NCBI RefSeq assembly: GCF_900155545.1
Contig: NZ_LT732526.1
Location: forward strand, 3,744,286-3,808,285
Direction of reading: 5' to 3'
DNA from: Clostridium sp. Marseille-P2415
GTDB taxonomy: Bacteria > Bacillota > Clostridia > Lachnospirales > Lachnospiraceae
Length of the DNA stretch: 64,000 nt
Shown in pieces: positions 1-16,544 of this stretch. The notes under the pieces were generated by a model. The model saw only the letters and a program-made list of their open reading frames with translations. It had not been told where the DNA came from and searched no databases. The position numbers and the translations under genes are program-made. The stretch's first letter is position 1; the number at the start of each line of letters is the position of its first letter.

Positions 1-389
1 TGCTGGCCTGGCTGGTATTTTATCAATGCGATCTGCTCTCCCTAAGTGACCGGACCGCAAGGGGACTGGGAGTAAATGTGACTGCGGTCAGGATCGGGGT
101 ATCCCTAATTGCAGTGGTCCTTGCCTCCATATCAACTGCAGAGGTGGGGGTAGTATCCTTTATCGGCCTGATCGTACCTCATATTGCCCGGATACTGATC
201 GGTTCCGGCCATAAGGCGCTGATCCCATTTTCCATGATCGGAGGAGCTTTTTTGATGCTCTTAGCGGATACCCTGGGGCGGACCATAGCGGCCCCTTATG
301 AAATTTCAGCTTCCATCCTGCTGTCCATTGTAGGCGGACCGATGCTGATCATCCTGCTTCGAAGGAGTGAAAAGACTTATGGCGTATGA
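1..389 (+). CDS. FecCD-family iron/heme ABC transporter permease (C-terminal part, start outside window)
   Basis: The reading frame is open from base 3 and ends at the TGA at 387-389; the N-terminus lies upstream of the window. The visible part has the FecCD/BtuC permease signature, including the 'DRTARGLGVNV' stretch, the conserved 'IGLIVPHIAR' loop that contacts the ATPase, and the closing 'ISASILLSIVGGP' membrane helix. Members form the membrane channel that imports ferric siderophores, heme or cobalamin from a lipoprotein receptor. The ATPase gene overlaps its 3' end, so the two are translationally coupled. The substrate cannot be told from this part alone; the NEAT protein downstream points to heme or iron. 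Confidence 0.9.
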   Translation, partial: LAWLVFYQCDLLSLSDRTARGLGVNVTAVRIGVSLIAVVLASISTAEVGVVSFIGLIVPHIARILIGSGHKALIPFSMIGGAFLMLLADTLGRTIAAPYEISASILLSIVGGPMLIILLRRSEKTYGV

Positions 390-1269
390 GAATAACCGCC
401 GTACTCCCCGCATGAAGAATGTAAGGGGCCTTGAGCTGGTACGGACAGTGAGGCAAGAAAGGCATGAGGATGCCGGGAATGGAAACAGAATGCCGGAGGC
501 GGTCATGAAGACGGAAGGACTTACCTTTTCTTATGACGGAACCGCCAATGTGCTGGAAAATTTCAATCTGGGAATACAAAAGGGAAAGATAACGGTGCTC
601 ATGGGAGCAAACGGCTGCGGAAAAAGCACCCTGTTCAATCTGATGACAAGGAACCTGTATCCGGATGAAGGAACCGTCCTCTTAAGGGGCAGGAATGCCG
701 ATGATATGAATCGGAAGGAATTTGCCCGGAATGTGGCGATCGTCCATCAGAACAATACTGCTCCGCCGGACCTCACGGTAGAAACACTGATCGGCTATGG
801 CAGGACCCCCTATCTGGCACCCTTTCAGACGGCAGGGGATATGGAAGATAAGAAAGCGGTGGAATGGGCCATGGAAGTGACTCACGTTGATCCGATCCGG
901 AATAAATACGTGTCGGAGCTGTCCGGGGGACAGCGGCAGAGGGTATGGATCGCCATGAGCCTTGCACAGATGACGGATGTGCTGTTTTTGGATGAGCCGA
1001 CCACCTATCTGGATATCCGGTATCAGATCGAGATACTGAAGCTGGTGAGGCGTTTGAACCGGGAATACGGGATCACCATTGTCATGGTACTCCATGATAT
1101 CAACCAGGCCATGGAATACGGAGATGTGTTCATCGGTATGAAGGATGGCGAAATTGTAACGGAAGGCGATCCGAAAGAGGTGGTGGATGCGGAGGTGCTT
1201 TATAAGCTTTACGGCATCCGGCTTCCAGTGGCGGAGACAGAGGGGAGAAGGTACGTGCTGACCGTTTAG
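379..1269 (+). CDS. FecE/FepC-like iron-complex ABC transporter ATPase
   Basis: Cytoplasmic ATPase partner of the preceding FecCD permease. It shows Walker A 'GANGCGKST' (about residues 76-84), a Q-loop 'VHQNN', the ABC signature 'LSGGQRQRVWIAM', Walker B 'VLFLDEPT' and the H-loop 'VLHD', in the order usual for FecE/FhuC/BtuD proteins. I chose the ATG at 379 because the AAGGAG at 362-367 lies 11 bases before it; a GTG at 367 is in frame but sits on that ribosome site. It overlaps the permease by 11 bases. About 45 residues precede the first strand of the ABC domain, longer than usual, so an internal ATG near 490-505 is a possible alternative. Confidence 0.92.
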   Translation: MAYENNRRTPRMKNVRGLELVRTVRQERHEDAGNGNRMPEAVMKTEGLTFSYDGTANVLENFNLGIQKGKITVLMGANGCGKSTLFNLMTRNLYPDEGTVLLRGRNADDMNRKEFARNVAIVHQNNTAPPDLTVETLIGYGRTPYLAPFQTAGDMEDKKAVEWAMEVTHVDPIRNKYVSELSGGQRQRVWIAMSLAQMTDVLFLDEPTTYLDIRYQIEILKLVRRLNREYGITIVMVLHDINQAMEYGDVFIGMKDGEIVTEGDPKEVVDAEVLYKLYGIRLPVAETEGRRYVLTV

Positions 1270-1270
1270 T

Positions 1271-1301
1271 CATGCCCCTTTCTTGAGGGGAAAGGGGCAT
1301 G
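1271..1301. terminator. Perfect 12-bp hairpin after the ABC ATPase gene
   Basis: CATGCCCCTTTC (1271-1282) pairs perfectly with GAAAGGGGCATG (1290-1301) around a 7-base loop, two bases after the ATPase stop codon. No T-run follows on either strand, so it may slow polymerase or protect the 3' end of the importer mRNA rather than act as a standard intrinsic terminator. Confidence 0.4.
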
Positions 1302-1418
1302 CTGCAAAAAAGCAAGACTCTTAATTCTGTTGTATCGCACACAATATGCGGATTAAGGTAGATGGGATTTAAAAGTCCTGAAACAACAAAATACCTCATT
1401 TTGAAAGGAGAATCTTTT

Positions 1419-1835
1419 ATGAAAAAAATTGCAACAATGGCTGCTGCTATGGCAATGTCCGCAATGATGGCGATGTCCGCATTTGCGTCAAATTATTCGG
1501 GAACTTATTTCTATTTTGATGCCGGACAGACACAGAAGGCCCCGGCCCATGCACAGACTACGGTAACGGGAATAGAAACAGCGGATGGCGACGAAGCAGG
1601 AACTACAGATATCGTCATTTATGTGCAGGAAATTGAGCACAGCGGAGTGGTCGGAGAGATCCAGTCCATTACGATTGATGGACAAACCGTGTATTCCGAT
1701 GGCAGTTCGATTGCATTTTATGGTGTAGATAACGATTTGATCAACGCCAAAGGCTTAATAAATGCATCAGTTACAATAACCAATGACGGTCATCCGGTGG
1801 ATCTTTCAGATATCTATCTGGATGTAGAACAGTAA
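1419..1835 (+). CDS. Small secreted protein of unknown function in the iron/heme locus
   Basis: The gene encodes 138 residues. The ATG at 1419 follows GAAAGGAG (1403-1410) and opens a clear signal peptide: a lysine pair, an Ala/Met-rich core and a cleavage-like 'SAFA' before 'SNYSG' (about residue 25). The mature part of about 113 residues looks beta-rich, acidic and cysteine-free, with one candidate domain and no membrane anchor, so it is probably released or bound to another surface protein. An in-frame ATG at 1362 would hide the signal peptide and is rejected. It lies between the ABC importer and the giant NEAT protein, suggesting a role in substrate capture, but I do not recognise the family. 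Confidence 0.75.
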   Translation: MKKIATMAAAMAMSAMMAMSAFASNYSGTYFYFDAGQTQKAPAHAQTTVTGIETADGDEAGTTDIVIYVQEIEHSGVVGEIQSITIDGQTVYSDGSSIAFYGVDNDLINAKGLINASVTITNDGHPVDLSDIYLDVEQ

Positions 1836-1928: not shown

Positions 1929-4900
1929 ATGAAAAGCAAGTGCCTGATGAAGGGGAAAATAAAATCGGTCATATTTCTGTTTTTTTGTCTGTCTTTGGCG
2001 CTCTTTAACACATGGGTCATCAGGGCCTGGGCGGATTATGAGACAGGCGTAACCTATATCGTTCCCATAGAATTCTACCAATCCAATGAGTGGGATTCAA
2101 CTGTATTAAAGGGAGTGGCTTCCAATATGCGGGTCCAGATGCAGGATAATGCGCTTGTAAAAAAGACAGAAGACGGGAAATATGAGGTTACCGTTTTTTA
2201 CCATGGATCCAGTTTTGAAGATATGCTTCAGATCATGGATAATTCCAGACTGCCAGAACTGAAGGAATTATATAAGAGTCCTGACCGTGTTCCCATGGGA
2301 ACTTTTAATGCACCGGAGGAATACCGGAATCCGGAATATGTTGAAACACTGAAAAATACAGGGAAAATAGATCCGGAAATGGATCCGTATTATAGAAAAG
2401 ATATAACATTTGCTTTAGTTGATAAAAACATGGATATTGGAAAAATGGTTTTTACAATGGACCGTTTATCAGACGGGGTCTATGTGAAAAATTGTTATAC
2501 GCCTGGGAAGGCGAACTCGATCGGGACCCAATGTGTAAGATTTGTGGAGGAAAAAAAGGAAATCCCCCTGACTTATAACGAAGGAAGCTATCGTTTGGGA
2601 TATGGCTGGTATAATTATGGGGAAGTAAAGAGCACAGACTATTCCCGGAAATATACGGAACAGAGCGTTGCCATGTATGAGAAATTAAGTGATTTATTTG
2701 AAAAGACTGTTCCGGTTTCCGTTGAAGGGGATGGAAAGATCAAGGCGGAATTTAAAATAAAAGATTCCGGTGACATACATACGATAGAAATTGCCACAAA
2801 GAAAAACGTGGATTTCAATACATTGACATCAACTCAGAAAACTTCACTTCAACAGGAATTTGTTGCGGCTGAATATGAAACGGTTTGGAACAGTGATACG
2901 GGTGGGGAGACCATTGAATTAGACTTCAACGATATACTTGACGGTTATTATCTTCGCATTATGACAAATGAATTAGAAGCATATAATGCGGATAAAACAG
3001 AAACAAACCAAAAGGGCTGGTATGCCTGCTTAAAGCTGGAGTCTGCCCCGGGCGAGGAGACGGAGGATTTAATCCTAACAAGCGGGGCAGCCAGGCTGAA
3101 AGCCAGGAGCGATGCCGTTCCGGCTGACAGTGAATTTATCTTCAGACAGCTTTCCCCAGAGGAAACCCCGGAGAATGTGATCAAATATACCGTTGATGGC
3201 TTAAGGCGGTTCTCTAAGGATGAGGACTCCTGTCTGGTGTATGACGGTTCTCTGGAAAGCGGGGGGACCCGTGTAGAGAAATTGAACGGCAATGTGACCC
3301 TGGAGGTGGCTCTTCCCGAGGGGTTTCATATGGATACAACTGCAGTCGCAGCATTTACCAGTGACGGCAGAAGCTTACTAAACCAGATGAACCAGTACAT
3401 AGATAAGGAAACCCGAACCTTTCGGTATACCACGACTCAGAGTTCTGAGATCAATGCGACCTACGTATTTTTTGACCGGGGAAATGTTTTGGACCCCTTG
3501 GAAATGGAGCAGCTGGAGGAGGGCGTATATGAAGTAGACTTAACCATTGCCCATGCCACTTACCGGTTCCGTCCGTCTATGGCCAACAGTTCTATTATGG
3601 ATAACAAGGGCGTATTGGAGGTCAGGGCCGGAGAAGACGGGAAGAAAACCTATCAGCTTTACTACGGGATGGAGCCTGTTTATGTCGGCCCTATTATAGG
3701 CTACATGACAGGAGAGGCCTACTGTAAGGGAAGCAGCAGAACTGACATCACGCCTGTTACGGTCCTGGAATACTATGCAAAGGAAGACGGAAATCTGGAC
3801 TATGATGCCTGGGCCGAAGAATTCCATTTCCAATACTTAAAACGTCTGACCTTCCCGCTGGAATCCCCGCAGGAAGACGGCACATATTTGCTTCAATTTG
3901 CTGTTCCTGCCATGGATGCAGAGCTTGGAGACGGAAGCGGGATCCAGTATGCCGCCCTTCGTGTCCGGAATCCCCAAAAAACAGGGGAAAACCGGCTGGC
4001 AGGATATGAAAAATCGGTTTTACAGGCAGTGATCGACCGGGCCGGACGTTATCTGGAGACCCTGGAATCGGGCAGCGAAGCCTATAACACCTTAAAGGAA
4101 GCCATTGATGCAGCCCGGGAAAGCAATAACAGTCCGGATGAAGAAACCATTGTCAGCGAAACGGAAAAGCTGCAGGCGGCTTTAAAGGCTGTCGGCGGTG
4201 ATTCAGAAGGAGTTAAGCTGTCCGACGGAACCTATGAACTGCCATTTGAGATCCAAAATTCATCGCAATCGGGGCAGTCGGATTTTCAGAAGTATTTCGA
4301 TACTTCAAAAATGGAGCTTAAAATCCAGGATGGCCGGATGACCCTGACACTTAAGGGCGTAAAACAGGGAGAGGATTATGTGACCTCTTTTCAATATGAC
4401 AATGGGGGAGCCGAAGCAGAGGACGGAGTGATCATAAACGGAGAGGATGGGCTTCCGGTCTCCTATGCATTTACGAGAGCGTACACGGAAGACCCCATTG
4501 AGATCAAACTGAGATCCGTTACCCAAAATGCTTTTGATTATGTCTGTTACCTGACCATGGATATTTCCGGAGCAGCCAGAAAGAAAGCAACAGAGGAAGA
4601 AATAAATGCATTGAGCAATAAGGTCCTGGAGGCCCGGAAATTACTTGAAGAGGACTATACCCGGAATTCCTATGAGGCATTGAAGGGGGCAATTGAGAAG
4701 GCTGAAACCTACCTGACGGTGGAGGAACCTTCCTATGATATCATATCCGGACAGACAACTGCACTGGCCGGGGCCTTTCATGATCTGGTTTCTCTGGTGG
4801 ATTTAAAAGCCAAAATCAAAGAAGCTTCCGAATATAAGAGCAGTGGTTATACGGAAGAAAGCTATCAGGCCCTTGCATTGGAGCTGGCAAATGCCAGAAA

Positions 4901-7900
4901 TATCCTGGTAAAGGCAGATGCGTCCGGCGAAGAGGTGAGCGTCCGGACCAGCAGGCTGCAGGAAGCGATTCAGGATCTCGTTCCGGCAGGAGAAGAACCG
5001 GGGGAATCGGGTCTGAAGGATGGAACCTATGAGATTCCCATGGGCTTATACAATACAGGAACGGAAAATGTCCATATGGACAGTCCGTATTACCGGTCGG
5101 CAGAATTGACAGTCAGTGAAGCGGGAAGCCAGATGGGCGTGAAGCTGAACATGCAGGCCAACGGGGAAAGCTGGATAACGGTTCTGAAATACAGCACAGA
5201 CGGAGGGGAGACTAAGACCGAGGTTACGGATATGGAAAAGGATGAAGCAGGAAATATCACAGCCTTCCGTTTATCTCTGCCCTATACGGAGGAGAGGATC
5301 ACGCTGTATGCGAGAAGCACAGCAAAGCCTTATTATGATACAAAGTCTGATCTGGTACTGGATTTTGCCGGAGCGGTAAAAAAACAGGAACCAGAAGTAC
5401 CGGTGGCTGATAAATCAAAGCTGGAATCACTCCTGTCTGAAACAGAAAGCATTTCAAAGGATCCTTATACAACAGACAGTTATGAGAAGCTTGAGGAGGC
5501 ACGTTCCGGTGCCAATGTGGTAAATTCGGATCAGAATGCCACCCAGACAGAAGTTGATGATTGTGTCAAATCCCTTCAGGAAGCTTACGATGCTCTGGAA
5601 TCCAGGGGGGATCTTACTTATGTAAATGAAATTATCTCCAAAGCAGAGCTGGCAACAGGAGAAGACCAGGGGAAGTATACGGCCGAATCTGTGCAGGCAC
5701 TTAAGGAGGTTCTTGACCGTGTTAAGGAAAAACTGGAAGCAGACAGCCATAATATGAATCAGGAGCAGGTAGACCGGCAGAAAGAGCTTCTAGAAGATGC
5801 ATACGGCGCGCTGGAAGAAAGCAGGATTCCTGAATTAAAGGAAGAATTAAAGGAATTGATACTTTCCTGTGAGAATTATTTACAGGAAGATTATACGGAA
5901 GAGAGCTGGGCAGCCCTGGAAGCGGCCCTCAAGACAGCCCGGAATCTGGAGGAAGAAGAAAGTACGTCGGAAGAGGAGTGTCAGGATGCAATCGCCCGCC
6001 TGACCATGGCAATCCAGGCGCTTGAGGAGAAAGATGAAACAGAGGATCTGTCCGGAATTTTGTTGACACTGCAGGAGCTGGCGGACAAAATGACCGGGGA
6101 AGTGCAGGATTCGGCAGATGAGATGGAGCCCACCAGCTATGCAGCTTATATGGCATCTGTAAATATGGCGGACAGCAGCAATTCTTATGCTCTTACGAAA
6201 GATCAGATTCAGGCACAGATTGACTGGATGAACGCAGAGAGCCATGCTTTGGTCCGGAATAATGAGCTTGAGGAATCTTATAATGTGATGTTTTTTGATG
6301 AATTATTTGACGCTGAATTACCGGAAGAGGAATTGATCGAAGAAAAAGCGGTAAACGAGGAATTACAGGAGGAACAGAAAGCCGAAACAAAGGCTGTTGG
6401 GAACATAGAGGAAGAGCCGGAAGCGGAAACAGGGAAAGAGCCGATAGCGGAAACAGAGGAAGAGTCGGAAGCAGAAACAAAGGAAAGCACGGAGGCCGAA
6501 ACAGAGGAAAGCGCGGAAGCGGAAACAGAGGAAAGTACGGAACCGGTAACAGAGAAGGAGACGGAGTCCGATATGGAAGAGGAGAAAGAAAAAGATGGAA
6601 CTCCCCAGCTTTCCATATCCCGTTCTACGTTGTCCATGTTCCGTTTGGGTGAATCTGCATCCACACCAAGCAGTGCAAAGCAGGATAAGAAAAAGCAGGC
6701 AAGCGCTGCTTTGGCAGCAAGCAAAGCAGTCAGCACCCTTCCCCGGGATGGAACTTACTCCATTAATTATGCCTTGTGGAAATATGATTTAAATGCAGCC
6801 TCTATGGGAAATCCTTCCTTTATTAAACCAGGGACGCTCATTATCGATGATGGGAAGGCCTCCATCTATATGAAGATGCAGGGAATGAACTACAGCGGTC
6901 TTTATGGGCATCTTAAAAGCATTTATCTTATGAAAAACATAAAAGAAACCTCTGACGGCCTGGATTACACCACGCAGGCTCCGTCTTACATCAAATATTC
7001 ACAGGAATCGGATGATTATGGCCCGGCTGGAAGCTATCCGTCTGTGGCTGGCTTCCCTGTGACCCTGTACCAGGAATACACGCCTGTAGAGGTGGATGTA
7101 CCTGTTATGGGAGAGGTGGGAAGGACTCAGGTTGCCCGTCTGCGCCTCTATTGGGATAGTCTTACATATGTAAATTCCTCGACGGATTATGAGAATAGCC
7201 AGACAGAGGAACCGGGCGGGAAGGAGATTGATACCGAAGATTTGAAAAAGGCGGTCACCGAGTTTGAGACTATGACAAAAGACTCATCCAAATTCATAAG
7301 CAAGTCCTATTATGCGGTTCTTAAGAGCGTGGCAGCAGGAGAGACACTGCTGGATCAGCCCGGAGTTTCTCAGGAAATGGCAGATAATCGGGCGGCTGCG
7401 ATCCGGGCAGGCATGAATGCGCTGATCCCGGCGGCTGCCAGCGGGGAGAAGGCAGAACTAAAGACATTGATCGAAAAAGCTGAGGCAGAGTATAAAATAA
7501 GTGATTATACGGAAGCATCCTATAAGGTATTGACCGCTGCCATTATTACAGCCGAAAAAACGGTCAGCAGTACGGACGTAACTCCCGGAATGGTAAACAG
7601 AGATATGAAAATGGTAAATATGGCCATCAGACAGCTGGTCAAGGATACATCGGATGATGTGAAAAGATCAGAACTGGAGCAGTGGATCACCACGGCGAAA
7701 GAGTATATAAAGTCCGATGAGTATACCGCAGCCAGCAAGGCGGCGTTAGTGGAGGTTTTATATGATGCCATGATGGTCGCAGGAAAGGAAAAGGCCACCC
7801 AGAAGGAAGTGGATGACCAGACCTCTGCCATAAAAGCTGCGGTCAGCAGGCTGGAAGGGATCGTGGATAAAACAGAATTGTATGAACTTTTGGAAAAAAC

Positions 7901-9458
7901 AAAAAAATACAACAAGTCGGATTATACGGAAGCTTCTTATGATGAACTGGTAAACGCGGTTGCGGCAGGTACCTTTGTATATAAGGACCAGACAGCAACT
8001 GCATCAACAGTCAGGGAAGCGTCTAATGCAATCAAGCGTGCCATCAACGGGCTTTCGGCAGCGGATGGCGGCGGCCAGACCGGAGGACTGGAGACGGCGA
8101 ACCAGACTCTGCTTTCGTGGATCCAGATGGCCGGCAGCTACGGCTCCAACGGTTATACGGCATCCTCTTATCAGACACTGGCCGTGGCACTTTCCAGCGC
8201 AAGAGAAGTCTATGCAAGCAGCACGGCATCTGCAGCCGAAAGATTGGCAGCGGCCGGAATCCTGCAGACAGCCGTCAATAATCTGGTCACGGATTCCGAC
8301 AGCGGCAGCAGCGGAGGTTCCGGCAAGAGCGATGAGGATGACGGCTGCTATAAGGTAAATGTACGTCTCTGGCACGCAACCATGAACAAAGCATCCATGG
8401 GAGACAGTGCTGTGGAAAAAAAGGCATATGTCCAGATTGAAGACGGCGATGTGACCATGCGCCTTGTAACCAAAAAGATGACGGTCAGCGGTATCACCGC
8501 ACATCTCCATGATTTCTGGATTTACGACGGCGGGGATTATGAAACGGCAGACCTGGTATCTACGGAAAACAGCAAATGGATTTTTGAATTTAATCTGCCG
8601 AATGACAGCTCCCAGTATTATAAGTGCAAGGTGGACCCGCAGGTAGATGTTATGGGAGACGACCCGGTAAAGGCAAGGCTCAAGGTGGACTGGAGCTCCT
8701 TAAAGGAAGTGGATGAGGATGACTGGGATGAGCTGACCGGGGACGTTGACGACGATGATGATGATACCACAACTATCAGCTCCGGCAGCGGTTCGGCAGA
8801 GCTTATCAGCTCTGAGACCGGAATCCGGGTCAAGGGAAACGCAGGCGGTCCAGGGGTCACTGTGGAAGTGAGCAAAAAAGACAGCGGCGCAGACTATGAC
8901 AAGGCCATCAATGCGTTAAGCAGTACTGCCGGCCGGTTCGTTCTTTACGACATCAAGCTGAAATCAGGCACGGAGTATGTACAGCCCAGGGAATCCGTGA
9001 CCCTCCGCATTCCGGTTCCTGCCGGATATGATACCGGCAGGCTGGTCCTGTACCGGATCAATGATGACGGAGAAAGAGAGGAAATAAGCGGCAGGCTGAA
9101 CGGAAGCTATTTTGAAGCAAACGTAAACCATTTCAGCCTGTACGCACTGGCGGAAAGCAATCAGGCCCACGCTTTGGCAAAGACCGCCGATAGCTTGGAA
9201 AACAAAAAAACAATAACCTTATCAAAGGCAGGATCTACAGGCAAAACAGGCTCCGGGGCAGGTCCAAAGACCGGAAGAGATACGGAAACTGTGCAGGGAG
9301 GCACCGGTAAATCTTCGGAACAGATGGCAGCCGGACGTGTGATCCCCTACACCGGAGACAGGACTCCTGTTAAAGAACTGATGGGTGTGGGAACCCTGGC
9401 TTTGCTTCTGGGCTTTGGGATGGCATTTACCGGAAAGGATCCGGAAAAAAGGAAATAA
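1929..9458 (+). CDS. Giant NEAT-module / FIVAR-repeat cell-surface protein, probable heme or iron capture
   Basis: A 2509-residue surface protein. Residues 1-36 are a signal peptide. NEAT-like beta modules occur near residues 38-130 (weak), 530-682 (weak), 764-883, 1030-1149, 1606-1750 and 2137-2261; the last two carry the NEAT-like pattern 'DGTYSINY...' to 'VDVPVMG'. Between them lie about eleven FIVAR-type helical repeats ('YTEESYQALAL', 'YTTDSYEKLEEA'), and residues 1461-1558 are a Glu-rich tandem repeat. A C-terminal beta domain (2281-2411) is followed by an 'IPYTGD' sortase-like motif (2473), a hydrophobic helix and a KRK tail, suggesting wall attachment. NEAT domains bind heme or hemoproteins in Gram-positive bacteria; here the YxxxY heme tyrosines are not obvious, so heme binding is inferred. 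ATG 1929 follows AGAGGAGGAG. Confidence 0.85.
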   Translation: MKSKCLMKGKIKSVIFLFFCLSLALFNTWVIRAWADYETGVTYIVPIEFYQSNEWDSTVLKGVASNMRVQMQDNALVKKTEDGKYEVTVFYHGSSFEDMLQIMDNSRLPELKELYKSPDRVPMGTFNAPEEYRNPEYVETLKNTGKIDPEMDPYYRKDITFALVDKNMDIGKMVFTMDRLSDGVYVKNCYTPGKANSIGTQCVRFVEEKKEIPLTYNEGSYRLGYGWYNYGEVKSTDYSRKYTEQSVAMYEKLSDLFEKTVPVSVEGDGKIKAEFKIKDSGDIHTIEIATKKNVDFNTLTSTQKTSLQQEFVAAEYETVWNSDTGGETIELDFNDILDGYYLRIMTNELEAYNADKTETNQKGWYACLKLESAPGEETEDLILTSGAARLKARSDAVPADSEFIFRQLSPEETPENVIKYTVDGLRRFSKDEDSCLVYDGSLESGGTRVEKLNGNVTLEVALPEGFHMDTTAVAAFTSDGRSLLNQMNQYIDKETRTFRYTTTQSSEINATYVFFDRGNVLDPLEMEQLEEGVYEVDLTIAHATYRFRPSMANSSIMDNKGVLEVRAGEDGKKTYQLYYGMEPVYVGPIIGYMTGEAYCKGSSRTDITPVTVLEYYAKEDGNLDYDAWAEEFHFQYLKRLTFPLESPQEDGTYLLQFAVPAMDAELGDGSGIQYAALRVRNPQKTGENRLAGYEKSVLQAVIDRAGRYLETLESGSEAYNTLKEAIDAARESNNSPDEETIVSETEKLQAALKAVGGDSEGVKLSDGTYELPFEIQNSSQSGQSDFQKYFDTSKMELKIQDGRMTLTLKGVKQGEDYVTSFQYDNGGAEAEDGVIINGEDGLPVSYAFTRAYTEDPIEIKLRSVTQNAFDYVCYLTMDISGAARKKATEEEINALSNKVLEARKLLEEDYTRNSYEALKGAIEKAETYLTVEEPSYDIISGQTTALAGAFHDLVSLVDLKAKIKEASEYKSSGYTEESYQALALELANARNILVKADASGEEVSVRTSRLQEAIQDLVPAGEEPGESGLKDGTYEIPMGLYNTGTENVHMDSPYYRSAELTVSEAGSQMGVKLNMQANGESWITVLKYSTDGGETKTEVTDMEKDEAGNITAFRLSLPYTEERITLYARSTAKPYYDTKSDLVLDFAGAVKKQEPEVPVADKSKLESLLSETESISKDPYTTDSYEKLEEARSGANVVNSDQNATQTEVDDCVKSLQEAYDALESRGDLTYVNEIISKAELATGEDQGKYTAESVQALKEVLDRVKEKLEADSHNMNQEQVDRQKELLEDAYGALEESRIPELKEELKELILSCENYLQEDYTEESWAALEAALKTARNLEEEESTSEEECQDAIARLTMAIQALEEKDETEDLSGILLTLQELADKMTGEVQDSADEMEPTSYAAYMASVNMADSSNSYALTKDQIQAQIDWMNAESHALVRNNELEESYNVMFFDELFDAELPEEELIEEKAVNEELQEEQKAETKAVGNIEEEPEAETGKEPIAETEEESEAETKESTEAETEESAEAETEESTEPVTEKETESDMEEEKEKDGTPQLSISRSTLSMFRLGESASTPSSAKQDKKKQASAALAASKAVSTLPRDGTYSINYALWKYDLNAASMGNPSFIKPGTLIIDDGKASIYMKMQGMNYSGLYGHLKSIYLMKNIKETSDGLDYTTQAPSYIKYSQESDDYGPAGSYPSVAGFPVTLYQEYTPVEVDVPVMGEVGRTQVARLRLYWDSLTYVNSSTDYENSQTEEPGGKEIDTEDLKKAVTEFETMTKDSSKFISKSYYAVLKSVAAGETLLDQPGVSQEMADNRAAAIRAGMNALIPAAASGEKAELKTLIEKAEAEYKISDYTEASYKVLTAAIITAEKTVSSTDVTPGMVNRDMKMVNMAIRQLVKDTSDDVKRSELEQWITTAKEYIKSDEYTAASKAALVEVLYDAMMVAGKEKATQKEVDDQTSAIKAAVSRLEGIVDKTELYELLEKTKKYNKSDYTEASYDELVNAVAAGTFVYKDQTATASTVREASNAIKRAINGLSAADGGGQTGGLETANQTLLSWIQMAGSYGSNGYTASSYQTLAVALSSAREVYASSTASAAERLAAAGILQTAVNNLVTDSDSGSSGGSGKSDEDDGCYKVNVRLWHATMNKASMGDSAVEKKAYVQIEDGDVTMRLVTKKMTVSGITAHLHDFWIYDGGDYETADLVSTENSKWIFEFNLPNDSSQYYKCKVDPQVDVMGDDPVKARLKVDWSSLKEVDEDDWDELTGDVDDDDDDTTTISSGSGSAELISSETGIRVKGNAGGPGVTVEVSKKDSGADYDKAINALSSTAGRFVLYDIKLKSGTEYVQPRESVTLRIPVPAGYDTGRLVLYRINDDGEREEISGRLNGSYFEANVNHFSLYALAESNQAHALAKTADSLENKKTITLSKAGSTGKTGSGAGPKTGRDTETVQGGTGKSSEQMAAGRVIPYTGDRTPVKELMGVGTLALLLGFGMAFTGKDPEKRK

Positions 9459-9514: not shown

Positions 9515-9925
9515 TTGAAAAAACTAATGAATACTGCTTGTGTGGCAATGGGATTTGTGTGCATAGGAGTCGGCTGCATAGGGATCGTGCTTCCCATTCT
9601 TCCGACCACTCCGTTTCTGCTTCTGGCGCTGGTACTGTTTGCCAAAGGTTCTGTCCGGTTCCACAGATGGTTTCTGTCTACAAAACTGTATAAAAAGTAT
9701 CTGGAAGATTTTGTTGTAACAAAGTCCATGACAAAAGGGATGAAAATCAGAGTCCTTGTTATTGTGACCTTGCTCCTTGCTGCCGGATTTTGGTTTTCCC
9801 CGGTTTTTGCAAAGGTCATCATTGTTATTGTAGCAGCGTTTCATTACGTATATTTCATCTTTGGCATAAAAACCACAGAGGAGAAAAAGATGATTCCGGG
9901 AGAAGGAAAAAGGGGAGTGTCATGA
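9515..9925 (+). CDS. DUF454 (YbaN-like) small membrane protein
   Basis: The 136-residue protein has the DUF454/YbaN pattern: an N-terminal helix, the motif 'GIVLPILPTTPFLLLAL', an amphipathic 'CF/FAKGSVRFHRW' segment and two closely spaced C-terminal membrane helices. The start is TTG at 9515, preceded by AGGAAAGGGG at 9496-9505. Its function is not established; YbaN homologues are often found next to heme or respiratory transport genes. Its stop overlaps the ATG of the CydD-like gene (ATGA at 9922), so the two are co-translated and probably work together. Confidence 0.85.
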   Translation: MKKLMNTACVAMGFVCIGVGCIGIVLPILPTTPFLLLALVLFAKGSVRFHRWFLSTKLYKKYLEDFVVTKSMTKGMKIRVLVIVTLLLAAGFWFSPVFAKVIIVIVAAFHYVYFIFGIKTTEEKKMIPGEGKRGVS

Positions 9926-11754
9926 TTAAAAAAAACCTGATCTGCCTTATGTCGGATTCCAAAAAGTATATTGTCCATAATGTCCTGTGGCAGTGGCTGG
10001 CCCTTTGGGCCTCGATTGCCGTCATGACGGCAGCGGGACGGCTTTTTGAGAAGGGTTACGGGGGACAGCTGACAGAAGGAAGCGTGGCGGTATCCGCAGG
10101 GGTGATCCTGCTGGCGGTCCTCGGGCGCATGGTCTGCAGCCGGAGGGCGGCCCTGGCTTCTGATCTGGCGGGAAGTGACATAAAACGGGAATTAAGAAAG
10201 CGGCTGTATGAAAAACTGATGGTTTTGGGAGCTGCTTATCACGAAAAGGTCCCTACGGCCGAGGCCGTACAGGTGGCAGTGGAGGGAGTGGAGCAGCTGG
10301 AAGTCTATTTTGGCAGGTATCTTCCCCAGCTTTTTTACAGTCTACTGGCCCCTCTCACGTTGTTTTTTGTCCTGTCTTTTATTAGCTTTAAAGCCAGTTT
10401 GGTTCTGCTCCTCTGTGTTCCGTTAATCCCTCTGACGATCATAGCAGTGCAAAAGGCTGCAAAGAAGCTGCTGAACAAATACTGGGGAATTTACACAGAA
10501 CTGGGAGACAGTTTTCTGGAGAATCTACAGGGGCTTACCACGCTTAAGATTTATCAGGCAGACGGGGATAAGGCAGCGAAGATGGATGAAGAGGCGGAGC
10601 ATTTCCGGAAAATCACCATGAAGGTCCTGATGATGCAGCTTAATTCCATTATTGTCATGGATGTGGTGGCCTACGGCGGGGCGGCCATCGGCATGATAGT
10701 CACGGTCCGGGAATATCTGGCAGGAAGTCTGGGGCTGGGAGGTGCTATGACCATTATTCTGCTGTCTTCCGAATTTTTTATCCCGATGCGCCTTCTGGGG
10801 TCATTTTTCCATATTGCCATGAACGGCATAGCTGCATCGGACAAGCTCTTTGGGATATTGGACATACCGGTTGAAAAAAGAGGGGAAAAGGAGCTGGAAA
10901 ACGGGCCGGTGGAAATCACCATGCGTTCTGTAGAATTTTCCTATGTACCGGAACGAAAGGTTTTAGATAAGGTGTCCCTGAAGCTTCCGGAGCAGGGCAT
11001 GGTATCTCTGGCGGGGCTTTCCGGCTGCGGAAAAAGCACCGTCGCTTCTCTGCTGACAGGCAAGAACAGGAATTACCGGGGAGAGATCCGGTTAAATGGC
11101 CTGGAGCTGTCAGATATCTCAGAAGAAAGCCTCATGTCCCATGTGACGCTGGTCAGCCATAACAGCTATATTTTTAAGGGAACTGTGGAGGACAATTTAA
11201 GGATGGCGGCACCGGAGGCGGGAAAAGAAGAGATGGAGGAGGTTTTAAAGGAAGTGAAGCTTTATGATTTTCTGATGGAGCAGAAGGGCCTTAAGACAGA
11301 GCTTGGGGAACGGGGCTCCAACTTATCAGGAGGCCAGAGCCAGAGACTTGCCCTGGCCAGGGCGCTGCTTCACGATACGCCGGTATACATATTTGATGAA
11401 GCCACCTCAAACATAGACGCAGAAAGCGAAAACCAGATCATGGCGGTAATCAAAAAGCTGGCCGGCCGGCGGAATGTTCTGCTGATTTCCCACCGCCTTG
11501 CAAATGTGGTTGATTCCGGCAGGATATATGTTTTAGAGGAAGGCAGGATTGCGGAAGAGGGGAATCATGAGGAGCTGCTTAAGAGAAACGGTGTATATGC
11601 AGGACTCTATCTGGGGCAGAAAGCGCTGGAGGAGTATGCTTCGGGAACTGATCTGGAGCAGGAGAAGCCGGATTGCTTGACCGACGGACGAAAGGGCAGG
11701 GAACGGAAAATAACACGGAAACCTGCGGAAAAAGGGGGAGTGCGGTATGCATAG
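9922..11754 (+). CDS. CydD-like ABC exporter, fused membrane and ATPase domains
   Basis: A 610-residue half-transporter: six membrane helices (residues about 20-330), then an ATPase domain with Walker A 'GLSGCGKST', signature 'NLSGGQSQRLALARAL' and Walker B 'VYIFDEAT'. The membrane part resembles CydD, including 'YFGRYLPQL' and the 'EFFIPMRLLGSFFH' helix. CydDC was described as a cysteine/glutathione exporter needed for cytochrome bd assembly and, from later structural work, as a heme transporter. The start is the ATG at 9922 that overlaps the DUF454 stop; an upstream in-frame ATG at 9790 only reads through that gene. It overlaps the next gene by 8 bases. No cytochrome bd gene is in the window, so I avoid a firm cydD symbol. 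Confidence 0.85.
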   Translation: MIKKNLICLMSDSKKYIVHNVLWQWLALWASIAVMTAAGRLFEKGYGGQLTEGSVAVSAGVILLAVLGRMVCSRRAALASDLAGSDIKRELRKRLYEKLMVLGAAYHEKVPTAEAVQVAVEGVEQLEVYFGRYLPQLFYSLLAPLTLFFVLSFISFKASLVLLLCVPLIPLTIIAVQKAAKKLLNKYWGIYTELGDSFLENLQGLTTLKIYQADGDKAAKMDEEAEHFRKITMKVLMMQLNSIIVMDVVAYGGAAIGMIVTVREYLAGSLGLGGAMTIILLSSEFFIPMRLLGSFFHIAMNGIAASDKLFGILDIPVEKRGEKELENGPVEITMRSVEFSYVPERKVLDKVSLKLPEQGMVSLAGLSGCGKSTVASLLTGKNRNYRGEIRLNGLELSDISEESLMSHVTLVSHNSYIFKGTVEDNLRMAAPEAGKEEMEEVLKEVKLYDFLMEQKGLKTELGERGSNLSGGQSQRLALARALLHDTPVYIFDEATSNIDAESENQIMAVIKKLAGRRNVLLISHRLANVVDSGRIYVLEEGRIAEEGNHEELLKRNGVYAGLYLGQKALEEYASGTDLEQEKPDCLTDGRKGRERKITRKPAEKGGVRYA

Positions 11755-13504: not shown

Positions 13505-13563
13505 TTGACTTGTGAGGATTGCAGTAGTAGTATAAAAACAGCAAAAAGTTAGCACAAACTAAC
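13505..13563 (+). promoter_or_regulatory. Promoter with a downstream GTTAG-N6-CTAAC operator-like repeat
   Basis: TTGACT (13505-13510), a 17-base spacer and TAGTAT (13528-13533) form a good vegetative promoter for the methyltransferase gene, with a start near 13540. An inverted repeat GTTAG-N6-CTAAC (13548-13563) lies at about +9 to +24, and a third GGTTAG occurs at 13574-13579. This is where a repressor could bind. No matching regulator is encoded next to it. Confidence 0.5.
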
Positions 13564-13595: not shown

Positions 13596-14402
13596 ATGAT
13601 GATGAATCTGGGAGATGTTCAGGAAACCATGCTGATTCCGCTGGCTGTCAAAGCGAATGAAACGCTTCGTCCCAATGCCAGGATCCACGATGATAAAGCA
13701 TTGCATATTATTAAGTCTCTGGGCATTGATACTTCAAAGTATGATAAATTTATGAGTCACGAAGGCGTTGTGGCAAGAACGATAATGTTTGATAAGGAGG
13801 TTAAGTCATATCTGGACCAGTATCCGTATGCCGTATGCATTAATCTGGGATGCGGCCTGGATGATCGTTTTTCCAGGGTCGATAATGGAAAACTTTTGTG
13901 GTATGACCTCGATCTTCCGGACTCCATTCAGGTCCGCAGCCGTTTTTTTGAAGATAATAAGAGGGTGACAATGATCGCCGGTTCTGTTTTGGAGCCTGGC
14001 TGGGCCGGTCAGGTGGAAAAGGGGAGAAAAGCGATTATTATTGCGGAAGGTTTGCTGATGTATTTTAAACAGGAAGATGTAAAAAAGCTGCTTTCCATTA
14101 TAACGGAACATTTCCTGGACTTTGTGATAATCGCCGAGTTAATGCATCCGTTTGCGGCAAAAGGCAGTAAGCATCACGATACGGTGAAAAATACAAAGGC
14201 TACGTTTAAGTGGGGAACCAAAACCGGGCATGAGCTGGAGAAACTGTGTCCGGGTCTTAAATTGGTTAAAGAAGACAGCTTTAATGTTGTTATGAAAACA
14301 TTTACTTTCCGGGGACGGTTATTTTCCTTAATTCCGGGCGTAAAAGACTGCAATGACCGTCTGGCAGTCTTTGAATGGGGAAACAGCCGGCAGCCTCTTT
14401 AA
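13596..14402 (+). CDS. LCM-family (Tcmp/PPM1-like) SAM-dependent methyltransferase
   Basis: The 268-residue protein fits the leucine carboxyl methyltransferase-like family (PF04072). It has the SAM-binding 'NLGCGLDDRF' (residues 83-92), 'LWYDLDLPDSIQVR' with the acidic residue that binds the SAM ribose, and 'IIAEGLLMYFKQEDV', typical of the family. In bacteria these enzymes methylate small-molecule hydroxyl or carboxyl groups, often in secondary metabolism; the substrate here is unknown. ATG 13596 follows AGGGAG (13581-13586). It has its own promoter and shares a convergent terminator with fprA, so it is probably monocistronic. Confidence 0.8.
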   Translation: MMMNLGDVQETMLIPLAVKANETLRPNARIHDDKALHIIKSLGIDTSKYDKFMSHEGVVARTIMFDKEVKSYLDQYPYAVCINLGCGLDDRFSRVDNGKLLWYDLDLPDSIQVRSRFFEDNKRVTMIAGSVLEPGWAGQVEKGRKAIIIAEGLLMYFKQEDVKKLLSIITEHFLDFVIIAELMHPFAAKGSKHHDTVKNTKATFKWGTKTGHELEKLCPGLKLVKEDSFNVVMKTFTFRGRLFSLIPGVKDCNDRLAVFEWGNSRQPL

Positions 14403-14533: not shown

Positions 14534-15721
14534 CTATTCACAAAGCGCCTTTGCTATCTCTGCAGCCTTATTAAAATCTTCCTCTTCCGGATTCCACAAG
14601 CACTTAGCTTCCTCCTCAATCACTGCAAATCCTGCATCGGTCAGCCTTTCCCGAAGAACCTTTGTACCCTCTCCGCTCCATCCATAGCAACCGAATACGG
14701 CAGCCCTCTTGCCCTTAAATCTCAGTTCCTTTAAGAAATCAAGCCATCCCCCTACGGAAGAAAGCACGCTTCCTCCAACGGTCGGAGAGCCTAAAGCAAT
14801 CGCCTTGGATTTAAACACCTCCGTCATGATGTCATTCTTATTTGTTTTAGAAATATTATAGATCATCACTCTTGTATCTGGTGAAATCTGTGCGATTTCG
14901 GCACTGATCTTGTGAGCAAGTTGTTTTGTCCCCTCCCACATGGTATCATAAACAATGGTGATCTGATCTTCCTGATAGTTCTGTGACCATTCATAATATT
15001 TTTCCACAATCTGCAGGGGATTATCTCTCCAGATTGAGCCGTGGCTGGTAGCGATGATGTCAATGGGCAGGTTCAGTCCTTTTATTTCCTCAATTTTCTT
15101 TTTAACAAGAGTTGAAAACGGAGTTAATATATTGGCATAATACTTCAAAGCCTCTTCCCAGAGCCGGCACTGGTCGGCTTTATCATTGAATAATTCTTCC
15201 ACAGCAAAATGCTGTCCAAAAGCATCATTGGAAAAGAGTATGTTATCTCCCGTCATATAAGTAGCCATGCTGTCCGGCCAGTGAAGCATTTTCATCTCAA
15301 CAAAGATAAGCTTCTTGCCATTTCCGATATCAATGGAATCCCCTGTTTTCACAACTTTATAATTCCACTCCGGGTGATGATATTGTCCGGTAAGTGATTT
15401 TACTCCGTTTGCCGTACAATAGATAGGAGCATCGGGTATTTTTTCCATCAGTTCCGGAAGAGAACCGCTATGGTCGATCTCCCCATGATTTGCAACAATA
15501 AAATCAATCTCTTTTAAGTCGATTTCTTTTTCCAGATTGTCTATAAACTCTGTGGAATGCGGCTTCCAGACGGTATCGATCAGGACAGTCTTTTCTTCTT
15601 TAATTAAATAAGCGTTCTGGCTCGAACCGTGATTAATGGAATAGTCTGCCCCATGGAAGGATTCCAGTTCCCAATCCATAATTCCAACCCAGTAAACATT
15701 ATTTTTCACAAGTTTCTTCAT
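14534..15721 (-). CDS. fprA: Flavodiiron protein (O2/NO reductase)
   Basis: A 395-residue type A flavodiiron protein. An N-terminal metallo-beta-lactamase domain (1-245) holds the diiron ligands H79-x-E81-x-D83-H84 in 'NHGEIDHSG', with further ligands in 'LHWPDS' and 'SNDAFGQHF'. A C-terminal flavodoxin domain (from about 255) begins 'ITIVYDTMWEGT'. The protein reduces O2 to water and/or NO to N2O in the cytoplasm of anaerobes, with electrons usually delivered by rubredoxin. There is no fused rubredoxin domain. It starts 2 bases after the ric stop, so both lie in one operon behind the Fnr-type promoter at 16.48-16.53 kb. Confidence 0.93.
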   Translation of the reverse strand: MKKLVKNNVYWVGIMDWELESFHGADYSINHGSSQNAYLIKEEKTVLIDTVWKPHSTEFIDNLEKEIDLKEIDFIVANHGEIDHSGSLPELMEKIPDAPIYCTANGVKSLTGQYHHPEWNYKVVKTGDSIDIGNGKKLIFVEMKMLHWPDSMATYMTGDNILFSNDAFGQHFAVEELFNDKADQCRLWEEALKYYANILTPFSTLVKKKIEEIKGLNLPIDIIATSHGSIWRDNPLQIVEKYYEWSQNYQEDQITIVYDTMWEGTKQLAHKISAEIAQISPDTRVMIYNISKTNKNDIMTEVFKSKAIALGSPTVGGSVLSSVGGWLDFLKELRFKGKRAAVFGCYGWSGEGTKVLRERLTDAGFAVIEEEAKCLWNPEEEDFNKAAEIAKALCE

Positions 15722-15723
15722 AA

Positions 15724-16422
15724 TTATATTCCTCCTTCATATTTTTGAAATAGCAATGAGTTTTCTGTAAATATGTGAATATAAATGTCCTTGATCAATT
15801 CCTGAAGCTTTTGAAAGACCAGATGGTAAGAGGCACAGCCGTCCTCCGGCACTGTAAAATCATTGGTGCGGAACGCGATTTCTTTTATCAGATTTCCGGC
15901 CGCTTCATGTTCATCTTCCAGCTCTTTCACATATCCGCCGTCACTTTTCCCGGAGAAACTTTTTTTCATATAGGGGAAAATCAGTTTTTCTTCCTTGGCA
16001 AAATGCTCCTGAAGTTCTTTTCTCAGATCCGAAAAAAGTCCATGGAGGGGAACCAGCTGCTTATGATGGTGCTCATAATGAGCAAGCAGGACTTTATTGA
16101 TCAATTCATCGATTTCCGTAAGAAGTATTCTCTCTTTTGCATGATGAGTAGCAATGATATAATCAATAAGGTCAGGAACCGCCATCTCTGTTAACCGTTC
16201 TATGGCCAGTACCTGTCCGCTGTCTGGTTCGTGAACTGCTTTCACAAGCTTTTTATTTAACAGTTCGATAAAGCTTTTTGAGTCAATACCAAGTTCTCGT
16301 ACCGCGTCTTCTAAAATATCTTTTCCGCCGCAGCAATAATCAATGTGAAAATCATTAAAAATATCAACTGCTCTTGGATATGCCTTAATCACATCGGTTA
16401 TCTTCATTTTATTTGTAATCAT
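15724..16422 (-). CDS. ric: RIC iron-sulfur cluster repair diiron protein (ScdA/YtfE family)
   Basis: A 232-residue RIC protein. The N-terminal domain (about 1-65) contains the signature 'FNDFHIDYCCGG'. The hemerythrin-like four-helix domain carries the histidine ligands in 'YIIATHHAKE', 'HYEHHHKQL', 'LQEHFAKEE' and 'LEDEHEAAG'. RIC proteins repair Fe-S clusters damaged by NO or oxidants. Pairing with flavodiiron fprA directly downstream gives a simple NO/O2 defence operon. Expression is probably under the Crp/Fnr-type site just upstream. Confidence 0.93.
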   Translation of the reverse strand: MITNKMKITDVIKAYPRAVDIFNDFHIDYCCGGKDILEDAVRELGIDSKSFIELLNKKLVKAVHEPDSGQVLAIERLTEMAVPDLIDYIIATHHAKERILLTEIDELINKVLLAHYEHHHKQLVPLHGLFSDLRKELQEHFAKEEKLIFPYMKKSFSGKSDGGYVKELEDEHEAAGNLIKEIAFRTNDFTVPEDGCASYHLVFQKLQELIKDIYIHIFTENSLLFQKYEGGI

Positions 16423-16478
16423 ATTTGACCTCCCTTTCTCTGAGCTCTTCGTTTTTTCGAAACCAGATGTTCTTTTTG

Positions 16479-16526
16479 TAAGGCTAGTATAACCAGGAAA
16501 GAGAAAGAAAAATGTGATTTAAATCA
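16479..16526 (-). promoter_or_regulatory. ric-fprA promoter with Fnr/Crp-type palindrome centred at -41.5
   Basis: On the minus strand TATACT lies at 16491-16486, predicting a start near 16479. The perfect palindrome TGATTTAAATCA (16515-16526) is centred between 16520 and 16521, exactly -41.5 from that start. This is the position of a class II Crp/Fnr activator site, and there is no good -35 box, as expected for an activated promoter. The half-site TGATT matches Fnr-type targets. The candidate activator is the Crp/Fnr gene directly upstream. The start site is predicted, not mapped. Confidence 0.7.
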
Positions 16527-16544
16527 TTATTTGAATGTTTTTTA

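What the first reader, a model, noticed from the sequence alone, without database searches (positions are those of the whole stretch)
1929..9458. 2509-residue surface protein combining several NEAT-like modules with about eleven FIVAR repeats and a wall-anchor-like tail
Seen: NEAT-like modules alternate with three-helix FIVAR-type repeats, a Glu-rich repeat at 6310-6600 and an IPYTGD end. Known: NEAT domains bind heme or hemoproteins, and FIVAR repeats act as spacers or ligand-binding rods. Inference: a long heme or hemoprotein capture fibre feeding the ABC importer next to it. The usual YxxxY heme motif is not clear, so the ligand may be new.
Basis: partly seen in the sequence, partly recalled or inferred. 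Interest (0 to 1): 0.7.

Follow-up and report, generated by a model that had tools for sequence, protein, structure and literature searches.

The report
Giant heme-capture surface protein
An unnamed clostridia-like bacterium carries a very long cell-surface protein, built from heme-binding-type and spacer modules, that most likely collects heme and passes it to the importer encoded next to it; the gene cluster also holds an unusual regulator with a similar heme-binding-type domain.

Summary
ORF 1929-9458 (2509 aa) has four Pfam NEAT stretches, a fifth found by profile, and two N-terminal modules whose low-confidence model matches NEAT domains above all else. It has eleven FIVAR repeats, a Glu-rich linker and an IPYTGD tail. 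Upstream lie a class B sortase, an Shp-like NEAT protein, an IsdE equivalog, FecCD and an ATPase; downstream, a CydDC-like exporter. One MAG keeps the order and a homologue (41% in its best segment). The missing YxxxY does not call for a new ligand: three modules keep the two methionines that hold heme iron in Streptococcus pyogenes Shr, and a profile of such modules best matches Shr NEAT2 (E 1.2e-35; IsdX1 7e-9). Best reading: a Shr/Shp/IsdE-like heme relay with FIVAR spacers, a new variant of a known kind; NEAT-FIVAR proteins are common in related genera. The most novel point lies just upstream of the window: a regulator joining a MntR-like DNA-binding half to a NEAT-like domain with the same methionines. 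Seen without uptake genes in six genomes, it lies by the only CydD orthologue in five. A cytosolic heme sensor is suggested.

The parts
78..389 (+). C-terminal part of the FecCD permease; the gene begins before the window (L001:15331-16389)
   Evidence: Pfam FecCD 1.5e-27; full gene
367..1269 (+). ABC importer ATPase, FecE type
   Evidence: ABC_tran 1.9e-33; best NCBIfam FecE 251.9 bits, below its cut-off of 375
1362..1835 (+). small secreted protein P0002, no known family; kept in the MAG between ATPase and giant gene
   Evidence: no Pfam match at E<=0.01, no NCBIfam match; 41% identical MAG copy; beta-sandwich model, fold match inconclusive
1929..9458 (+). 2509-aa NEAT/FIVAR surface protein P0001
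1929..2036 (+). signal-peptide-like N-terminus (read by eye)
   Evidence: sequence
2034..2564 (+). N-terminal module A (res 36-212), NEAT-like fold; related N-termini in two other giant proteins
2550..3104 (+). N-terminal module B (res 208-392), NEAT-like fold
3105..3518 (+). unassigned stretch (res 393-530), conserved in the MAG homologue
3513..3965 (+). NEAT module 0 (res 529-679) with Met551 and Met662 at the two axial positions
4011..4190 (+). FIVAR repeat 1
4218..4571 (+). NEAT module 1 (res 764-881), methionine pair absent
4608..4982 (+). FIVAR repeats 2-3
5013..5369 (+). NEAT module 2 (res 1029-1147), second Met absent; three copies in the MAG homologue
5412..6026 (+). FIVAR repeats 4-6
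6309..6599 (+). Glu-rich linker, 41% Glu
6747..7163 (+). NEAT module 3 (res 1607-1745), Met1626 and Met1727
7239..8288 (+). FIVAR repeats 7-11
8340..8705 (+). NEAT module 4 (res 2138-2259), Met2157 and Met2242
   Evidence: best Pfam NEAT stretch
9342..9455 (+). IPYTGD sorting-signal-like tail with hydrophobic stretch and basic end
9515..9925 (+). small membrane-type ORF that looks like L003:15938-16321, which also stands between giant gene and CydD (by eye; the CydD start at 9790 overlaps it and may lie further down)
9790..11754 (+). CydD-like ABC exporter subunit
   Evidence: TIGR02857 393.2 bits, cut-off 435; next own-genome match 207.6 bits
11747..13420 (+). CydC-like ABC exporter subunit
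   Evidence: TIGR02868 317.8 bits, cut-off 329.05
13548..13563 (.). GTTAGN6CTAAC iron-box-like palindrome before the methyltransferase gene 13596-14402

Best explanation
P0001 is a wall-anchored receptor for heme or hemoproteins in a Shr/Shp/IsdE-like relay. Eleven three-helix FIVAR repeats space at least five NEAT modules, plus two N-terminal NEAT-fold modules, away from the wall. Modules 0, 3 and 4 bind heme iron through two methionines, as Shr does; modules 1 and 2, which lack the pair, act as spacers or hemoprotein contacts. Heme passes to the Shp-like NEAT protein, then to the IsdE-type lipoprotein and the FecCD/ATPase importer. The CydDC-like exporter handles heme inside the cell, and the NEAT-bearing regulator senses it. 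Shown here: domains, gene order, conserved methionines, family membership of IsdE and sortase. Inferred: heme binding, anchoring, the transfer order, the exporter's substrate, and the sensor role.
For: Pfam NEAT and FIVAR. IsdE TIGR03659 and SrtB TIGR03064 above their cut-offs. The IsdE protein aligns to 5joq and 2q8p at 2.5e-75 and 5.2e-63, with a Met (AMGPD) and a His (AAHALPE) kept (that these are the ligands is recalled). A profile of 15 modules, 14 of them with both Met and so not a neutral sample, hits Shr NEAT2 9w5y at 1.2e-35, next IsdX1 at 7e-9; its Met columns fall on chain positions 28 and 138, the spacing of Met997 and Met1107 named as ligands in PMC12796733. A profile of 10 small NEAT proteins has one hit at E<=1, Shp 2q7a at 5e-40, both Met invariant in the 10. 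Unselected sample: of 94 clusters at 50% identity, Met stands at the first position in 73 and at the second in 55 of the 60 that have a residue there; the next most Met-rich column has 16. Same order in L003. IsdE in 16 of 25 regulator-bearing loci. No cytochrome bd subunit I in 12 of 12 genomes tried, found in 10 of 14 controls, so the CydDC-like pair is unlikely to serve that oxidase.
Against: No binding data. Modules 1 and 2 lack the methionine pair. Only 43 of 94 clusters have both Met by the alignment; 25 more have the first Met and a gap at the second. Fold evidence for the N-terminal modules rests on a model of mean pLDDT 45.8, and module B has no sequence support. Both Cyd subunits fall below their NCBIfam cut-offs. 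The anaerobic heme-degradation family HutW is not reached in the own genome: best 184.8 bits, cut-off 400; other degradation routes were not searched. Inverted repeats lie before P0002 and, read by eye, before the giant gene, so one transcript is not assured. Which sortase recognises IPYTGD was not tested.
Confidence: 0.75

Rival explanations
1. Adhesin or host-protein binder in which NEAT modules serve as beta-sandwich binding domains and heme is not the ligand.
For: FIVAR-type repeats occur in enzymes and adhesins of other kinds (lacto-N-biosidase and ZmpB models match residues 1144-1226 and 1840-2042, which hold FIVAR repeats); modules 1 and 2 lack the methionine pair.
Against: Cluster with IsdE, SrtB, FecCD and an Shp-like protein, kept in the MAG; strongly conserved methionine positions.
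Confidence: 0.1
2. The receptor takes another tetrapyrrole (chlorophyll derivative, bile pigment, cobamide, or iron-free porphyrin) rather than heme.
For: HutW-type heme degradation not reached; FecCD importers also carry cobamides and siderophores (established knowledge; B12 and siderophore models match too).
Against: IsdE equivalog above cut-off; two-methionine sites match heme-iron ligation in Shr and Shp; iron-box-like sites at the cluster.
Confidence: 0.1
3. The CydDC-like pair is a thiol or other exporter that only happens to be next to the uptake genes.
For: TIGR02857 and TIGR02868 are named thiol exporters and are not reached; 11 of 25 regulator loci lack CydD and CydC above 500 bits in the stretch held.
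Against: 14 of 25 regulator loci hold the pair against 2 of 9 NEAT loci without a regulator in view; 5 of the 6 genomes whose regulator stands without uptake genes have the pair there, and it is the only CydD orthologue found in each; CydDC is reported as a heme transporter (PMC10374445, abstract).
Confidence: 0.3

Closest known systems
Shr / Shp / SiaABC (HtsABC) system of Streptococcus pyogenes
   Same: NEAT modules with two methionines at the ligand places, Shp-like small NEAT protein, substrate-binding protein of the IsdE kind
   Different: No Pfam match to HID (DUF1533) or leucine-rich parts as in Shr (Shr layout recalled); eleven FIVAR repeats; class B sortase in the cluster; NEAT-bearing regulator; CydDC-like pair
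Isd system of Staphylococcus aureus and Bacillus anthracis
   Same: IsdE equivalog, class B sortase, NEAT surface proteins
   Different: Tyr motif YxxxY is rare here: 14 of 154 NEAT stretches have any YxxxY in the last 40 residues, several of them in the strand just before the second Met
Cht locus of Clostridium perfringens (ChtD, ChtE; PMC5026354, abstract and passages)
   Same: Clostridial NEAT proteins reported to bind heme, with a sortase and an ABC importer in one locus
   Different: The sortase there is class D; sequence comparison with ChtD/ChtE was not made
'Clostridial Group' NEAT domains of PMC4143258 (passages)
   Same: No YXXXY; that paper noted a conserved Met in the beta7-beta8 loop, recalled the two-methionine ligation of Shp, and lists FIVAR among features of NEAT proteins
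   Different: In the passages seen it favours Phe as ligand and I saw no Ser-Met / Met pair proposed; the words regulator and helix-turn-helix do not occur in its main text
MntR/DtxR metalloregulators
   Same: DNA-binding and dimerisation half of the cluster's regulator: 4hx4, 1.3e-11, profile positions 18-129
   Different: NEAT-like C-terminal part; the metal-site region looks unlike MntR (ligand positions recalled)

Membership tests
NEAT domain (PF05031) | score over Pfam cut-off | tested here: met
   97 bits against 32.8 for the protein, 4 stretches; 3 of 4 pass alone
NEAT domain (PF05031) | NEAT fold of modules outside Pfam (res 35-393) | tested here: met
NEAT domain (PF05031) | YxxxY heme motif | tested here: not met
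   none of the five P0001 stretches is among the 14 of 154 with YxxxY in the last 40 residues; Shr and Shp do not use it
Two-methionine (Shr/Shp) NEAT type | Met at both axial positions | tested here: met
   modules 0, 3, 4; not modules 1, 2; alignment to 9w5y
Two-methionine (Shr/Shp) NEAT type | heme bound through both Met | not testable with these tools
   needs spectra or a structure
Shr | HID (DUF1533) and leucine-rich parts (recalled) | tested here: not met
   Pfam at E<=1 lists NEAT, FIVAR, Golvesin_C (0.018) and GCP_C_terminal (0.27) only
FIVAR (PF07554) | score over cut-off | tested here: met
   74 bits against 29.2; 7 Pfam stretches, 11 by own profile
Isd-type importer | IsdE equivalog | tested here: met
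   TIGR03659 358.3 against 298.65
Sortase-anchored protein | LPxTG-like motif, hydrophobic stretch, basic tail | tested here: met
   IPYTGD tail, also in L003; cognate sortase not tested
CydDC | NCBIfam cut-offs of CydD and CydC | tested here: not met
   393.2 against 435; 317.8 against 329.05
DtxR/MntR regulators (upstream gene) | wHTH and dimerisation half | tested here: met
   4hx4 1.3e-11 with the profile of 10 regulators; Pfam lists only weak wHTH families for L001's copy
DtxR/MntR regulators (upstream gene) | metal ligand residues | tested here: inconclusive
   profile alignment shows the region unlike MntR; ligand positions recalled
NEAT domain in the regulator | profile match independent of the regulators | tested here: met
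   First half of the domain: Pfam NEAT in 5 of 10 regulators, 15.7-27.9 bits, all below cut-off; profile built with regulators removed: 14 of 26 regulator ORFs at E<=0.001, reversed control none; hhalign 96.9% over NEAT positions 1-77 against 0.7% reversed; 9w5y 2.1e-4
NEAT domain in the regulator | match over the whole domain, second Met included | tested here: inconclusive
   hhalign 97.8% over NEAT positions 1-132 only; in the cleaner test the match stops at 77; the second Met is invariant in A3 but its equivalence is read by eye
NEAT fold for P0002 | fold match | tested here: inconclusive

The most novel reading that the evidence does not exclude
The cluster's regulator is a new class of cytosolic heme sensor: a MntR/DtxR-type DNA-binding protein whose ligand domain is a NEAT domain, a fold known to me only from outside the cell membrane. 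It would bind heme through two methionines and control a CydDC-type heme exporter and, where present, the NEAT uptake genes. The giant receptor, the Shp-like relay and the regulator would then use one ligation chemistry on both sides of the membrane. (Set at 0.45 rather than 0.5 after re-checking that the regulator-free NEAT profile matches only the first half of the domain.)
Probability: 0.45. Interest if true: 0.8.

Novelty: new variant of a known kind. Interest (0 to 1): 0.6.

Why it matters
The abstract of PMC12796733 calls methionine ligation a characteristic of S. [quoted passage not shown] The same pair of positions is kept widely in this bacterial family, so two-methionine NEAT heme transfer is probably a broader chemistry, and the 'missing YxxxY' of clostridial NEAT domains gets a testable answer. 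A NEAT domain in a transcription regulator beside a heme-type exporter would be, to my knowledge, the first sign of this fold working inside the cell; the listings (titles and abstract starts) showed no such protein, but those papers were not read for it.

Tried and rejected
P0002 as a secreted bis-His NEAT hemophore: suggested by a His at places that looked like the two Met, but hhalign gave 2.1%; no NEAT entry stood in the first 50 Foldseek rows, where no match was better than E 0.03; VIA gave a tie of NEAT and fibronectin-type folds. Left open, not claimed.

GTTAGN6CTAAC as the NEAT regulator's own operator: 34 exact copies at spacer 6 in 684 kb, about 1.0 expected from mononucleotide shuffles, one copy at another spacer. 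But 25 of 25 genomes of the genus, 24 of them without any NEAT hit, hold 9-39 copies against 1-8 for the reversed pattern. So it is read as a general DtxR-type iron box. By eye, 4 of the 8 genus sites whose surroundings were held have a flavodoxin, a FecCD or substrate-binding gene, or a ZIP-like gene beside them; the other 4 do not. Rejected as regulator-specific.

I first took the fifth NEAT place for the small NEAT gene; it is the regulator. HutW-type heme degradation: not reached. The first PDB search with module 4 alone found nothing at E<=0.1; only the profile search did. The model of residues 35-393 is poor, and sequence profiles alone would not have called module B a NEAT. The full-length protein search over the family failed on the machine and was not repeated, so P0001 relatives outside the genus are known only from the one named-genome scan (one locus) and from NEAT hits. 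Phage, plasmid, viral and E. coli collections and Rfam were not searched.

The regulator counts include fragments: L045 is split over two frames, L109 has in-frame stops, L110 repeats L048 and was dropped. Both methionine motifs: 17 of 25 loci by regular expression, 18 with L105 read by eye from the printed tail; 7 lack one or both or are fragments. The ten rows of A3 were chosen before, and all ten have both. L105 is a 3,961-base contig and says nothing about neighbours.

Full report
What is there. The ORF 1929-9458 on the + strand is intact, 2509 aa. Pfam finds NEAT (E 1.3e-27, 4 stretches) and FIVAR (E 1.6e-20, 7 stretches). A profile grown from the protein's own NEAT modules over loci of related genomes finds a fifth NEAT at 529-679; hhalign gives it 98.9% against an alignment of 91 NEAT stretches without it. 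A FIVAR profile from the protein finds exactly 11 repeats here and 11 in the MAG homologue. The Glu-rich linker and the IPYTGD tail are as described.

The cluster. Upstream of the window lie a regulator, a class B sortase (TIGR03064, 162.7 against 153.75), an Shp-like NEAT protein, an IsdE equivalog (TIGR03659, 358.3 against 298.65) and FecCD. In the window follow the ATPase, the small secreted P0002, the giant gene, and a CydD/CydC-like pair just below the NCBIfam cut-offs. A MAG contig, L003, has the same order throughout and a 2841-aa homologue, 41% identical in its best segment, with NEAT module 2 present three times.

Spread. In the genus, 1 of 25 genomes, the own, has the protein at E<=1e-10, and 1 of 25, again the own, has any NEAT hit at E<=0.01. 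In a one-per-genus sample of the family, 42 of 299 have a NEAT hit at E<=0.001 and 19 pass the cut-off. The tools name neither genus nor family; I take it for a Lachnospiraceae-like anaerobe from memory only. NEAT with FIVAR is common in the loci held: 22 of 35 NEAT-bearing frames of 450 aa or more (hand count, L110 dropped), with large examples of 1914, 1890, 1735 and 1633 aa. So the giant is an extreme, patchily held member of a wider design.

The ligand. YxxxY is rare: 14 of 154 NEAT stretches have it anywhere in the last 40 residues. Instead a Ser-Met in the first loop and a Met in the beta7-beta8 loop are kept: 73 of 94 clusters, and 55 of the 60 with a residue at the second place, against 16 for the next most Met-rich column and a Met background of 3.7%; both together in 43 of 94, while 25 more have the first Met and a gap at the second. 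A profile of 15 modules, 14 of them with both Met, hits Shr NEAT2 (9w5y) at 1.2e-35, far above IsdX1 at 7e-9, and its Met columns fall on chain positions 28 and 138, the spacing of the ligands Met997 and Met1107 (PMC12796733, abstract and passages). The small NEAT protein's profile has one PDB hit at E<=1, Shp (2q7a, 5e-40), both Met invariant in 10 of 10 rows. In P0001, modules 0, 3 and 4 have the pair; modules 1 and 2 do not. The 'new ligand' is therefore not needed: two-methionine ligation explains the missing YxxxY. PMC4143258 had noted the loop Met in clostridial NEAT domains in 2014 but, in the passages seen, favoured Phe.

The regulator. The fifth NEAT place lies in the upstream regulator (L001:11253-12104, 283 aa, no signal peptide by eye). 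Ten such proteins align; both Met are invariant at 20-26% identity to the first row. Against the PDB their N-terminal half matches MntR (1.3e-11), and their C-terminal part Shr NEAT2 (2.1e-4) and IsdX1 (8.6e-4). Pfam sees NEAT in 5 of the 10, 15.7 to 27.9 bits, always below its cut-off. A NEAT profile built with the regulators removed hits 14 of 26 regulator ORFs at E<=0.001, reversed sequences none; hhalign 96.9% against 0.7% for the reversed alignment. These cleaner matches cover only the first half of the domain; the second half aligned (97.8%, positions 1-132), with a profile whose search had once included regulators, so the place of the second Met is less secure. In the family sample at least 18 of 299 genomes have a match from the start of the model to position 249 or beyond, one of them with two in-frame stops, and three more have parts; the other listed hits are mostly to the DNA-binding half.

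Regulator and CydDC. Of 25 regulator-bearing loci (L110 dropped as a copy of L048; two genomes give two loci each), 14 hold CydD and CydC above 500 bits, against 2 of 9 NEAT loci without a regulator in view. In six genomes the regulator has no IsdE, FecCD or other NEAT gene in the 10-20 kb held (G039, G049, G062, G185, G203 second copy, G287; L099 of G049 has weak ATPase and sortase matches). Five of these six have CydDC beside it, 0.2-1.8 kb away, and a search of those genomes found one CydD orthologue each (709-796 bits, next best at most 219); G062 has none (at most 150 candidates were scored per genome). I fetched these loci for the regulator, not for CydDC; the search was then run on genomes already seen to have the pair, plus G062 and the own. 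Cytochrome bd subunit I is absent from 12 of 12 genomes tried, so the pair is not there for that oxidase; CydDC is reported to move heme (PMC10374445, abstract).

Iron control. GTTAGN6CTAAC palindromes stand before the sortase gene in the own locus and in L003, and before the methyltransferase gene at 13596. They are genus-wide, so they speak for iron control of the cluster by a general regulator, not for the NEAT regulator's own site.

How it most likely works. Under iron shortage the giant is made and wall-anchored; FIVAR rods carry NEAT modules outward; the N-terminal modules and modules 1-2 may hold the hemoprotein while modules 0, 3 and 4 take heme through two methionines; heme passes to the Shp-like protein, IsdE and FecCD/ATPase. 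Inside, the NEAT regulator would sense heme and set CydDC. Binding, transfer, anchoring and sensing are inference; domains, order and conserved residues are shown.

Verdict. The giant is a new variant of a known kind. The most novel reading, a NEAT-based cytosolic heme sensor, is not excluded by anything found here and is directly testable.

Noticed in passing
L001:11253-12104 (about 4 kb upstream of the window): Regulator with MntR/DtxR-type DNA-binding half and a NEAT-like C-terminal part carrying the two methionines.
   Followed up: yes
window 1362-1835; L003:6581-7009: Small secreted protein of unknown family; 2 of 299 family genomes hit, the own and one weakly (7.6e-4), plus the MAG; conserved APxHAQ and GHPV motifs.
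   Followed up: partly
window 13548-13563; L001:12410: GTTAGN6CTAAC palindromes, a genus-wide iron-box-like site, also before the methyltransferase gene at 13596-14402.
   Followed up: partly
window 14534-17234 (and AraC-type gene to 18086): Minus-strand group of an ODP/flavodoxin flavoprotein, a ScdA-type hemerythrin, a Crp-type and an AraC-type regulator, with the look of an oxygen or nitric-oxide defence set.
   Followed up: no
L109:8224-9884: Regulator copy interrupted by in-frame stops in another genome; described only.
   Followed up: no
L003 giant gene, frame residues 1047-1433 (numbering): One NEAT module present in three very similar tandem copies, apparently a recent expansion.
   Followed up: no
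window 1269-1362 and 1836-1928: Inverted repeats before P0002 (script) and before the giant gene (by eye), possible terminators or attenuators.
   Followed up: no
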